A stretch of DNA of 43,471 nucleotides. It comes from an uncultured Clostridia bacterium. Lineage in GTDB: Bacteria > Bacillota > Clostridia > Christensenellales > UBA1242. This document shows, one piece after another, positions 40,048 to 43,333 of the stretch. Location: contig CANRGF010000003.1 in the NCBI GenBank assembly GCA_947630075.1, forward strand, positions 1-43,471, in the 5' to 3' direction. Below the pieces are notes generated by a model. It searched no databases and was not told the origin of the DNA. It saw only the letters and a program-made list of their open reading frames with translations. The stretch's first letter is position 1. Each line of letters opens with the position of its first letter. A program made the position numbers and the translations under genes.

Positions 40048-41769
40048 TTAGCTGTGCCAACACGAAAAATTTCTAAGCGAAAATGAATATAATTTGTGAT
40101 TTTCGCTTAAAATTTGCATAATTTCATCTTTAATTTTTGCTTTTTCATCTGTTGGTGCAGAAGCTGAATAAAAATAATTTAATCCTTCATTTTGCGAGGC
40201 TATTTTGCAGTTTTTTGTGAAAGTGAAATCGTTGATTTCAAACACATCTACCAAATCTAAATTTGCTTTGATGCCATTAAGGGTTTGCGTTAGGTCGTCC
40301 TCCGTTTCTTCTGGGAAATTGAAAAGCAGGCTTACGCTCGTTTTTATGCCATATTTTTTGCTTAAGCGCAAGATGTTTAAGGCGTGGTCAACTGTTATTC
40401 CTTTGTTCATTTTGTTGAGTAAATTTTGGCTAAAACTTTCTAAGCCCAAAAACATCATTTTCAACCCGTGCTCGCTAAAATGTTTTATTGTTTCTTCACT
40501 ATCGAGCGCGGGGTCGAAGCGGAATGTGCCCTTCCAATTAATTTTCACGCCACGCTCATCAAGCCCTTGCAAAATGTTTTTCACTTCGCCAGGAATTAGG
40601 CAATCATCCACAAATTCGATGTTGTGCACTCCTTGTGAAGATAAATTGCAAATTTTTTCCACAATGTTTTTGCAACTAAATGAAAAATTATCCCTATTAT
40701 GTCTATCGCAAAACAGGCATTTTTTATAATAACACTCTCGCCTTATTGACACGGGCGCAATCTTAAACACGGCAACATATTTTTCAAAATCAATTTGAGG
40801 ATATTCCGTTGTGGGTGTGCCCATTCCGTTTAGTTGAGCGATTGGCACAACGCTTGAAAAGAACGAGGTGAAAAAACTTGGATTATAGTTTGCTTCGAAT
40901 AATGTTGAGTTGTCAACTAAAATTGGCTTAATGTGGAGCACTTCATCTAAAATTTTTGCAAAAATGGTTGCGCTCATCAGTTTGTTGAAATTGTTCACAA
41001 CTAAATATATGTTTGCCCTTTTGCCGTTATACTTTTTTATTATGGCTTCAATCTGCGAAAGTTTTGAAAGATAGAATGGATATAAAATTGAAGATTTATG
41101 ATTTGAAATCGTGCTTTCAATGGCAAGAGAATTTTTGGGGTCGCATAAAGTTAACTCGCCAAAAGAGAAACGGAAAACGCCGAATTTCTTTTGCTGAATG
41201 GCTCGGCAAATTTGTGTGTAGCGATAAAAACTATCCACATCTTTTTCACTTTTTGCGTGCTTATATAATTCAATTTTTTCAGGCGAATATATTTGGCGAT
41301 TGAAGTCCAAATTAAAATCAAAATAAAAAGTGTGCTTATTTTTTGCCGCTAGCGCCTGCCAAACTTGAATGGTTGCCTCGTTGAAATATTTGGGTTTATT
41401 GAAAGGAATATCTAAAACCAAGTTTATGCAATCTTCCTCTTTTTTTGTCTTGGCAGGCTTTGCCACAGCGATGATGTCGCTTAAAGCAAACCAAGTTTTT
41501 TCGCAAGCGGGCTGATTATCCCCCTGCAAGCAAACTTTATTATTTTTATTATCAATCTCCACCACTCTATGAATGACAAAGTTTTCCACCTTATTGCCTA
41601 TGGCAACGGCTATGTCCCCCACTCTTAGCGAAAATTCATTTGAGATTTCCACATCTTGCCCGCTGAAAAAAGTGGGCACCATGCTAGAACCAAAAATCTT
41701 CACATTTTTGATTTTGCCTTGCCTAATTTTATCTATAAAAAATTTTCTTGAAAGGGTTTTATTTATCAT
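40048..41769 (-). CDS. S26/S24 peptidase-like domain fused to a radical SAM enzyme (putative RiPP maturase)
   Basis: N-terminus GSSMVPTFFSGQDVEI...RVGDIAVAIG...FVIHRVVEI...CLQGDNQP; C-terminal half ECYYKKCLFCDRHNRDNF and IEFVDDCLIPGE...MMFLGLESFSQNLLNKMNKG. Confidence 0.85.
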   Translation of the reverse strand: MINKTLSRKFFIDKIRQGKIKNVKIFGSSMVPTFFSGQDVEISNEFSLRVGDIAVAIGNKVENFVIHRVVEIDNKNNKVCLQGDNQPACEKTWFALSDIIAVAKPAKTKKEEDCINLVLDIPFNKPKYFNEATIQVWQALAAKNKHTFYFDFNLDFNRQIYSPEKIELYKHAKSEKDVDSFYRYTQICRAIQQKKFGVFRFSFGELTLCDPKNSLAIESTISNHKSSILYPFYLSKLSQIEAIIKKYNGKRANIYLVVNNFNKLMSATIFAKILDEVLHIKPILVDNSTLFEANYNPSFFTSFFSSVVPIAQLNGMGTPTTEYPQIDFEKYVAVFKIAPVSIRRECYYKKCLFCDRHNRDNFSFSCKNIVEKICNLSSQGVHNIEFVDDCLIPGEVKNILQGLDERGVKINWKGTFRFDPALDSEETIKHFSEHGLKMMFLGLESFSQNLLNKMNKGITVDHALNILRLSKKYGIKTSVSLLFNFPEETEDDLTQTLNGIKANLDLVDVFEINDFTFTKNCKIASQNEGLNYFYSASAPTDEKAKIKDEIMQILSENHKLYSFSLRNFSCWHS

Positions 41770-42829
41770 CTTTTGCACTTTTTACACTATTATAAATAAA
41801 TTTTGCCTCTCTGCAATTTTGTTCAACAGGCAAAATAACCTTGCCATTCGTGCGGTGCTCCATGTAGGTGGACACAGCGCAGTTTGAACAAAACTTTTTA
41901 TATTTGCAGTTGTAACACTCGCCAGATTTATCCTTTTCTAAATTTAGATATTGTGAAAAACTATCCCAAATTTCTTTGATTGAAAAGTCTTTAATATTTT
42001 TTTCGCTAAACTCGGCAAAATTGCACAGCCTCACTCCGCCCAAGCAGTTTATGAAAATGCTAATCCTGCCTGCACCGCAAGAATATAAGCAATCGTTATC
42101 ATTATTCATGTTTTCTCTGGTTAAGAAACTTAGCCAATTTTTTAGTTTTAGTTTTTTTATTTTGTTCATTATTGACAAATAGTCTTTGTCAGTTAGGCGG
42201 TTGGTTTGCTGACCGTTTGAAAAATCTTTGCTTGCAAGCAGGTTTAAATCAAATCTAAAAGGCACATTAAAGCCGGTGCAATAGTCATTAATCTGCTCAA
42301 ACTGTTTCCAATTCTGCTCCATGATAACTGTTTTAAGCGAAAGGGTTAGCCCAGCATCAATGAGCAGATGAATGTTTTTATTCACCACAGAAAAGCCGTC
42401 ATTAACTAAGCAAACGGACTTATAAGTAACATCGTCCACCCCATAAATGCTGATTTCAATCCTCTCGGGCGGATTTGCCTTTAAAAAGTTGATATACTTA
42501 TCTAAAAAGTAGCCGTTCGAAAAGAGGGCGATTTTCAAGCCTTTATCAAAGCAGTGCTTATAAATTTCTTTAAAATTTGGGTGAACGGTTGGCTCTCCAC
42601 CCGTGATTGTGATGGTTTCCAACCCCATTTCGCACATCTCGTCTATCATTCGCTTTGCAATATCTAGCGGAATAAACTTTATGGCGAGATTTTGATTATA
42701 ACAATGAATGCACTTAAAATTGCACGCGTTGGATATTTCAAAGGTGGCGGAGCGCAGTTTGCGATGATTGCTCAGCCGTTTATAATATTTTTTGAATAGG
42801 AAATTTTTAAGTTTTTCTTCATTTAACAT
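41759..42829 (-). CDS. Radical SAM/SPASM peptide-modifying enzyme
   Basis: ISNACNFKCIHCYNQN (CX3CX2C), TITGGEPTVHPNF, SPASM-like C...GGVRLC...CYNCKYKKFCSNC...C; start at ATG overlapping the upstream stop. Confidence 0.92.
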   Translation of the reverse strand: MLNEEKLKNFLFKKYYKRLSNHRKLRSATFEISNACNFKCIHCYNQNLAIKFIPLDIAKRMIDEMCEMGLETITITGGEPTVHPNFKEIYKHCFDKGLKIALFSNGYFLDKYINFLKANPPERIEISIYGVDDVTYKSVCLVNDGFSVVNKNIHLLIDAGLTLSLKTVIMEQNWKQFEQINDYCTGFNVPFRFDLNLLASKDFSNGQQTNRLTDKDYLSIMNKIKKLKLKNWLSFLTRENMNNDNDCLYSCGAGRISIFINCLGGVRLCNFAEFSEKNIKDFSIKEIWDSFSQYLNLEKDKSGECYNCKYKKFCSNCAVSTYMEHRTNGKVILPVEQNCREAKFIYNSVKSAKDDK

Positions 42830-43097
42830 AGGCAACATCCGCCTCAATTAACTGATTGATAAAATTCTTTAAATCTGCCTTGGCACGAGATTTCGAAACG
42901 TCAAAAGATTTAACCATTTCTTCTTCAATTTCTTCACTCGTTTTGCCCTGCTTTATCTTTAAAAATATGAATTTTGCCACATCTTCAAGCACTATTGCGT
43001 GCTCATAATCTATTTCATGCTTTTCATTTTCCTTAGTTAAGATAAGGCAATTTTCATATTCATCGTCCACTATGTTTGGCTTAATAAATATTTTCAA
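42819..43097 (-). CDS. PqqD-like peptide-binding (RRE) protein
   Basis: 92 aa, TTG start after GGAGGTGATGT; VLEDVAKFIFLKIKQGKTSEEIEEEMVKSFDVSKSRAKADLKNFINQLIEADVAYV is PqqD-like. Confidence 0.8.
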   Translation of the reverse strand: MKIFIKPNIVDDEYENCLILTKENEKHEIDYEHAIVLEDVAKFIFLKIKQGKTSEEIEEEMVKSFDVSKSRAKADLKNFINQLIEADVAYVK

Positions 43098-43115
43098 AAC
43101 ATCACCTCCATAAAT

Positions 43116-43150
43116 AAAAAAGTTATAATTTATGCAATTATAACTTTTTT
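43116..43150 (-). terminator. Hairpin/attenuator between precursor and PqqD-like gene
   Basis: Minus strand AAAAAAGTTATAATT-GCATA-AATTATAACTTTTTT, perfect 15-bp stem. Confidence 0.8.
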
Positions 43151-43155
43151 AAAAA

Positions 43156-43260
43156 CTAGCAATAGCAAGAGTCGTCATCACTTCCTGAAGAATTGCAGCC
43201 GCTAAAAACTGAAATCTTGCTTAGGTCAATTTTTAGCAAAACGGGAGTTGAATATTTCAT
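43156..43260 (-). CDS. Putative RiPP precursor peptide (34 aa; absent from the ORF track)
   Basis: ATG at 43260 preceded by AAAGGAGGGCGCT; MKYSTPVLLKIDLSKISVFSGCNSSGSDDDSCYC, stop at 43156; first gene of the PqqD/radical SAM operon. Confidence 0.85.
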   Translation of the reverse strand: MKYSTPVLLKIDLSKISVFSGCNSSGSDDDSCYC

Positions 43261-43304: not shown

Positions 43305-43333
43305 ATCATAACATATAAAAATAATTTTGTCAA
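43305..43333 (-). promoter_or_regulatory. Predicted sigma-A promoter of the RiPP operon
   Basis: Minus strand TTGACA - 17 nt - TATGAT. Confidence 0.8.

What the first reader, a model, noticed from the sequence alone, without database searches (positions are those of the whole stretch)
43156..43260. Uncatalogued 34-aa Cys-rich precursor at the head of a radical-SAM RiPP operon
Seen: a short minus-strand ORF MKYSTPVLLKIDLSKISVFSGCNSSGSDDDSCYC, with a strong AAGGAGG RBS and a TTGACA-17-TATGAT promoter, lies directly upstream of PqqD-like, radical SAM/SPASM and radical SAM fusion genes. Established: PqqD-like proteins and SPASM radical SAM enzymes commonly act on small leader-core precursors. Inference: MKYSTPVLLKIDLSKISVFSG is the leader and the C-terminal Cys/Ser/Asp-rich stretch (CNSSGSDDDSCYC, three Cys) is the core, perhaps thioether- or otherwise crosslinked. 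I do not recognise the core from a known class.
Basis: partly seen in the sequence, partly recalled or inferred. Interest (0 to 1): 0.93.

Follow-up and report, generated by a model that had tools for sequence, protein, structure and literature searches.

The report
RiPP operon with peptidase–radical enzyme fusion
A very small gut bacterium carries a conserved gene set that appears to make a tiny cysteine-containing peptide, dock it on a carrier protein, modify it with radical enzymes and cut off its leader; unusually, the likely cutting enzyme is fused to one of the radical enzymes.

Summary
The 34-aa ORF (43156-43260, minus strand) has its RBS, an 11/12 sigma-70-like promoter and the three downstream genes as stated. 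It is a real gene: a congener whose enzymes are only 40-61% identical has the same four-gene operon, and there the peptide is 79% identical, with the same promoter spacing and a different hairpin at the same place.

(1) The leader carries a YxxPxL motif, which in lasso and LPP RiPPs binds a PqqD-type RRE. (2) A terminator-like hairpin separates precursor from enzymes. (3) The third gene is a membrane-anchor-less SipW/SEC11-like (S26B) signal-peptidase domain fused to a cobalamin-class-like radical SAM domain. A 2026 paper showed that such a peptidase, helped by an RRE, is the leader peptidase of another RiPP family (LPP), so I infer that role here.

Best reading: an RRE-guided SPASM enzyme modifies the CNS...DD.SC(Y) core, probably as thioethers; the fusion adds a second change and removes the leader. 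Chemistry, cleavage site and product are untested. The fusion was found in only 4 of 34 congeners and nowhere else searched. New variant of a known kind.

The parts
43305..43333 (-). Promoter TTGACA-17-TATGAT with extended -10 (TG)
   Evidence: 11/12 consensus; TTGAC-17-TANGAT kept in L002 and L051
43265..43273 (-). Ribosome-binding site AAAGGAGGG
   Evidence: sequence; AGGAGG conserved in the relatives
43156..43260 (-). Precursor peptide gene, 34 aa
   Evidence: 79% identical homologue at the same place in G009 (L051:8759-8866) and 100% in L002
43198..43260 (-). Proposed leader, residues 1-21, with YSTPVL (YxxPxL) at residues 3-8
   Evidence: residues 3-19 nearly invariant; motif as in lasso and LPP leaders (PMC10368454, PMC13381572); boundary inferred
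43159..43197 (-). Proposed core, residues 22-34 CNSSGSDDDSCYC; conserved C22 N23 S24 D28 D29 S31 C32 Y33
   Evidence: alignment with G009 precursor; boundary inferred
43115..43151 (-). Intrinsic-terminator-like hairpin between precursor and PqqD
   Evidence: 16-bp stem, -15 kcal/mol, z -5.3; a different-sequence hairpin at the same place in G009, z -5.7
42819..43097 (-). PqqD-type discrete RRE, 92 aa
   Evidence: Pfam PqqD 37.2 bits, cut-off 23.4; family profile hits TbiB1 1e-9, PqqD, TfuB1, 9x8z, 9x90
41759..42829 (-). SPASM radical SAM enzyme, 356 aa; C36/C40/C43 plus C251, C269, C305, C308, C314, C317, C339
   Evidence: Pfam Radical_SAM 74.6 bits, SPASM 21.4 bits (cut-off 21.5); best solved relative SkfB; all these Cys kept in G009
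40048..41778 (-). Fusion protein, 576 aa (GTG start; ATG possible at 41769)
   Evidence: same architecture in L002 and G009; fragment in G011
41443..41778 (-). S26B (SipW/SEC11-like) peptidase domain, no membrane anchor; S32, H70, D87 invariant
   Evidence: TIGR02228 35.3 bits here and 51.2 in the G009 copy (cut-off 51.85); SEC11A; alignment and hydrophobicity; S24/S26 fold, pLDDT 81
40744..41442 (-). Middle region, probable degenerate B12-binding-like domain
   Evidence: no Pfam match; weak profile overlap and alignment to N-terminal regions of B12-class radical SAM proteins; low-confidence model
40261..40743 (-). Radical SAM domain with CYYKKCLFC (Cx4Cx2C) motif
   Evidence: Pfam 50.3 bits; nearest NCBIfam models PhpK, ArsL, MgmA-type, all far below cut-off; Foldseek best MgmA

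Best explanation
This is a four-gene RiPP operon. SHOWN by comparison: the 34-aa peptide is a conserved gene under stronger amino-acid constraint than its enzymes, preceded by a conserved promoter and followed by a conserved hairpin. INFERRED steps: (1) The hairpin ends most transcripts, so precursor mRNA exceeds enzyme mRNA. (2) The PqqD-type RRE binds the leader through YSTPVL. (3) The RRE presents the core to the SPASM enzyme, which makes radical crosslinks from C22 and/or C32, most likely thioethers to nearby core residues such as the conserved Asp pair. (4) The radical SAM half of the fusion makes a second modification, probably without cobalamin. (5) The S26B half of the fusion, a cytosolic Ser-His-Asp peptidase, cuts off the leader with help from the RRE, plausibly at F19-x-G21|C22, leaving CNSSGSDDDSCYC. 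(6) The product is exported by a general transporter or stays in the cell.
For: Conserved precursor in a diverged congener with promoter and hairpin. RRE: Pfam PqqD over its cut-off; the family profile matches lasso RREs TbiB1 and TfuB1 and PqqD. YxxPxL is the lasso leader motif (PMC10368454), and LPP leaders use YxxP (PMC13381572). All SPASM and radical SAM cysteines conserved; SkfB, a sporulation killing factor maturase, is its best solved relative. S26B: TIGR02228, SipW and SEC11A matches, invariant Ser, His and GD-Asp over 12 sequences, no membrane helix while eight family signal peptidases all have one, S24/S26 fold model. PMC13381572 shows that a SipW-like peptidase (S29/H68/D93) needs an RRE to cut a YxxP leader. 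L030 independently has PqqD, SPASM radical SAM, a YEKPVL precursor, an HprK-like kinase and a SipW-like peptidase in one operon. No B12-binding domain over the cut-off in any of the four genomes, while 12 of 14 controls ring.
Against: Only two independent full copies, plus one fragment, all from draft genomes. The leader lacks the LPP motif HQxIxFET; LPP-like spacing from the Tyr would put the cut after V18, not G21. The residue aligned with the second acid of SEC11A (which I recall as catalytic) is Glu here and in G009, although this position also varies in ordinary family members. No dedicated exporter in the operon and no C39 peptidase domain found in the genome. Core chemistry cannot be read from sequence: no NCBIfam maturase cut-off is reached. 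The fusion's radical SAM half has an unusual Cx4Cx2C motif and may be inactive or do something else.
Confidence: 0.6

Rival explanations
1. RiPP operon as above, but the S26B domain is not the leader peptidase: it is a degenerate peptide-binding or regulatory domain, and the leader is removed by a host protease or kept.
For: Second acidic residue is Glu; LPP cleavage motif absent (one search compared with PMC13381572); another S26B protein exists in the genome, G000:C73.
Against: Ser, His and GD-Asp are invariant in both lineages; L030 shows a stand-alone S26B peptidase in a similar operon.
Confidence: 0.2
2. The product is a peptide-derived cofactor or other intracellular metabolite, as for PqqA and mycofactocin, not an exported crosslinked peptide.
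For: No transporter in the operon or upstream in L002; mycofactocin maturase is among the top NCBIfam matches of the SPASM enzyme; conserved Tyr near the C-terminus.
Against: Mycofactocin maturase cut-off not reached (91.8 of 265 bits); no PQQ or mycofactocin partner genes in the operon; patchy distribution, 4 of 34 congeners.
Confidence: 0.1
3. The short ORF is an attenuation leader peptide whose Cys codons sense cysteine or Cys-tRNA at the following terminator, and not a substrate of the enzymes.
For: Cys codons at the ORF end directly before a terminator-like hairpin.
Against: The strongest conservation is in the N-terminal half, including YxxPxL, which attenuation does not need; an RRE gene follows; no competing stem appears in the predicted fold of this short segment.
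Confidence: 0.04

Closest known systems
LPP (linear polyphosphorylated peptide) RiPPs, Popov et al. 2026, PMC13381572
   Same: Discrete RRE, YxxP leader motif, SipW-like Ser/His/Asp peptidase as the (proposed) leader peptidase
   Different: No HprK-like kinase, NTP transferase or MsbA-like transporter here; LPP motif HQxIxFET absent; radical SAM enzymes present (the paper's text has no mention of radical SAM); the peptidase is a domain of a radical SAM protein
Sactipeptide and ranthipeptide clusters (SkfB, AlbA, PapB)
   Same: SPASM/twitch radical SAM enzyme with RRE guidance and a Cys-containing core; PapB joins Cys to Asp (PMC9413430)
   Different: RRE is a separate protein; NCBIfam cut-offs not reached; 13-residue core with two conserved Cys; no crosslink shown
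[quoted passage not shown]
   Same: Discrete PqqD-like RRE next to a radical SAM enzyme
   Different: This precursor family and the peptidase fusion were not found described there
L030 (DYFC01000062.1) operon
   Same: PqqD, SPASM radical SAM, YxxPxL Cys precursor, SipW-like peptidase
   Different: Peptidase stands alone; has an HprK-like kinase; precursor lies after the radical SAM gene and is 58 aa

Membership tests
RRE-dependent radical SAM RiPP cluster | Short conserved precursor beside the enzymes | tested here: met
   homologue at the same position in a diverged congener
RRE-dependent radical SAM RiPP cluster | RRE domain | tested here: met
   PF05402 over cut-off; TbiB1, PqqD, TfuB1 by profile
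RRE-dependent radical SAM RiPP cluster | Radical SAM/SPASM enzyme with complete cluster ligands | tested here: met
   Cx3Cx2C and seven SPASM Cys conserved
RRE-dependent radical SAM RiPP cluster | Modified peptide product | not testable with these tools
   needs co-expression and MS
LPP | SipW-like peptidase with discrete RRE and YxxP leader | tested here: met
LPP | Leader motif YxxPxVLxHQxIxFETxxS | tested here: not met
   only the YxxP part and a few hydrophobic positions match (motif)
LPP | HprK-like kinase, NTP transferase, MsbA-like transporter in the cluster | tested here: not met
   gene content of window and L002
Sactipeptide | Known sactipeptide maturase family (AlbA, SkfB, StsB models) | tested here: not met
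   71.7/850, 45.8/300, 66.8/625 bits
Sactipeptide | Cys S to alpha-carbon thioether | not testable with these tools
   needs MS/MS or NMR
Ranthipeptide | PapB equivalog | tested here: not met
   40.2 of 340 bits
Ranthipeptide | Cys to non-alpha carbon thioether | not testable with these tools
   needs MS/MS
Lasso peptide | Cysteine peptidase B2 and macrolactam synthetase | tested here: not met
   no such gene near the operon in window or L002; rest of genome not searched
Type I signal peptidase (S26B) | Catalytic Ser, His and GD-Asp | tested here: met
   invariant in 12 sequences
Type I signal peptidase (S26B) | Membrane anchor | tested here: not met
   max 19-aa hydropathy 0.91 against 2.3-3.0 in eight family members
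Cobalamin-dependent radical SAM enzyme | B12-binding domain | tested here: inconclusive
   no PF02310 match; weak alignment to such N-terminal regions, GG replaced by DN

The most novel reading that the evidence does not exclude
One polypeptide both makes a radical modification on a RiPP core and removes its leader: a signal-peptidase-type leader peptidase fused to a radical SAM enzyme, which could make cleavage depend on completed modification. The precursor family and this fusion are not described in the papers read, nor found outside one genus in the genomes searched.
Probability: 0.4. Interest if true: 0.72.

Novelty: new variant of a known kind. Interest (0 to 1): 0.58.

Why it matters
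SipW-like signal peptidases were recognised as RiPP leader peptidases only in 2026, in kinase-type LPP clusters. This locus and L030 extend that role, if the inference holds, to radical SAM clusters, and here the peptidase is fused to a radical SAM domain. That suggests a physical coupling of modification and leader removal which can be tested with four small genes. It also shows a compact RiPP system kept in a gut bacterium with a genome of about 1 Mb.

Tried and rejected
Phylum-, order- and family-wide searches for the precursor found only the window, L002/G021 and G009; the weak hits outside the genus (E about 1e-3 to 1e-2) were mostly short partial matches inside longer frames, were not followed up, and were not counted. 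Viral contigs: no relative of the fusion, five weak radical SAM hits. Plasmids: no fusion relative beyond the radical SAM domain, no precursor. Class-wide fusion search: radical SAM domain only. The AlphaFold model of the whole fusion was poor (pLDDT 57), so its fold search is used only for the better-modelled radical SAM part. I first took E93 as a lost catalytic Asp; the 12-sequence alignment shows that the second acid varies while the GD-Asp is invariant. Lasso, LPP, sactipeptide and ranthipeptide membership were each tested and not granted.

Full report
OBSERVATION. The ORF, RBS, promoter and gene order are as stated. The window is the whole of contig C3 of a 985-kb draft genome, 88% complete. 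Upstream there lie tRNA-Arg (read from the sequence) and a divergent 109-aa ORF, not a transporter.

IS IT A GENE? In congener G009 (L051) the same four genes stand in the same order. PqqD is 40%, the SPASM enzyme 61% and the fusion 48% identical, but the peptide MFKKYTTPVLQKIDLSKISVFCGCNSYSNDDNSCY is 79% identical. dN is 0.116 for the peptide against 0.47, 0.33 and 0.48 for the enzymes, with dS saturated. The promoter is kept as TTGAC-17-TANGAT. A hairpin with a T run follows the stop codon in both lineages, with different sequence but the same place (z -5.3 and -5.7). The peptide was found in 3 of 34 genomes of the genus and, at convincing scores, in no other genome of 311 in the family, 396 sampled from the order and 250 from the phylum. 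The fusion was found in 4 of 34 congeners, one as a fragment at a contig end, and only its radical SAM domain had matches class-wide.

THE PROTEINS. Gene 2 is a PqqD-type RRE; a seven-sequence profile matches TbiB1, PqqD, TfuB1 and PDB entries 9x8z and 9x90. I suspect that the last two are the RREs of PMC13381572 from their descriptions; this was not checked. Gene 3 has the radical SAM motif and all seven SPASM cysteines, conserved in G009; SkfB is its best solved relative. Gene 4 begins with an S26B domain: TIGR02228 gives 35.3 bits here and 51.2 in the G009 copy (cut-off 51.85), SipW and SEC11A match too, and Ser32, His70 and Asp87 are invariant over 12 sequences. It lacks the hydrophobic anchor that all eight compared family signal peptidases have. 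A 12-sequence model (pLDDT 81) matches LexA, UmuD', SPC and SpsB folds with TM-scores of about 0.5-0.6, though no match reaches E = 0.001. Its radical SAM part is nearest to PhpK/MgmA/ocin-type cobalamin enzymes, but far below every cut-off and with Cx4Cx2C. The middle region looks like a degenerate B12-binding domain (weak evidence), and none of the four genomes has a PF02310 match over cut-off, so cobalamin use is doubtful.

MECHANISM. The leader motif YSTPVL is the YxxPxL motif of lasso leaders (PMC10368454). In LPP RiPPs a YxxP leader is bound by a discrete RRE, and the SipW-like LppS (S29, H68, D93) then cuts the leader only when the RRE is present (PMC13381572). In ATG-start numbering the fusion's residues are S29, H67 and D84. 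From this I infer that the S26B domain is the leader peptidase. F19-x-G21|C22 resembles the LPP F-x-T| pattern, but the cut would follow 19 residues counted from the Tyr instead of 16, so the site is open. L030 supports the pairing independently: PqqD, SPASM radical SAM, YEKPVL precursor, HprK-like kinase and a stand-alone S26B peptidase over its TIGR02228 cut-off (73.6 bits). The core keeps C22, N23, S24, D28, D29, S31, C32 and Y33. Thioethers from Cys to Asp have precedent in PapB (PMC9413430), but this is inference. The hairpin probably sets precursor above enzyme expression, also inference.

KNOWN OR NEW. [quoted passage not shown] I found no paper on the two together or fused: a 2023 review of RiPP leader proteases has no 'signal peptidase' (PMC10885120), and PMC13381572 has no 'radical SAM'. 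Absence from the held library is not proof. The locus is not an LPP, lasso, sactipeptide or ranthipeptide member by the tests made. It is a new variant of the RRE/radical SAM RiPP kind.

CONTEXT. The operon lies upstream of a HelD-like helicase gene in the window, L002 and G009. In G011 the fusion fragment lies upstream of a glf-like gene instead. Five congeners that have a relative of the helicase gene show no operon in the 4-5 kb upstream of it. This fits gain, loss or transfer, as reported for LPPs.

LIMITS. Two independent full copies, all from draft genomes; no experiment; no complex modelling; metagenome contigs could not be scanned.

Noticed in passing
L030:5682-8615: PqqD, SPASM radical SAM, 58-aa YEKPVL Cys precursor, HprK-like kinase and SipW-like peptidase in one operon: a radical SAM cluster with LPP-type partners.
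   Followed up: partly
L007:4783-9076 (Clostridium hydrogeniformans DSM 21757): YydG-like radical SAM, 32-aa peptide MFYEKPEFEIITINLLGNVCACASDDDNPWAG, SPASM radical SAM, a 578-aa protein that looks like an ABC transporter, PqqD-like protein: a named strain with a Cys/DDD core, useful for experiments.
   Followed up: partly
L005:5638-7198: PqqD, SPASM radical SAM, then a 44-aa peptide MMSYVKPDIKKVDVNVAVAKHSDNQSSCQGGHCVKATYEKDPWG.
   Followed up: partly
L112:4467-6170 (G898:C114): A PqqD-like N-terminal stretch fused to a B12-class radical SAM protein in one frame.
   Followed up: no
L003:6001-8268: SPASM radical SAM protein with an extra C-terminal domain of about 430 aa.
   Followed up: no
window:43350-43471: The flank diverges from L002 a short way above the -35 box, suggesting a recombination boundary directly upstream of the operon.
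   Followed up: partly
window:36571-37830: Putative lipoprotein with Mycoplasma-type DUF285 repeats.
   Followed up: no
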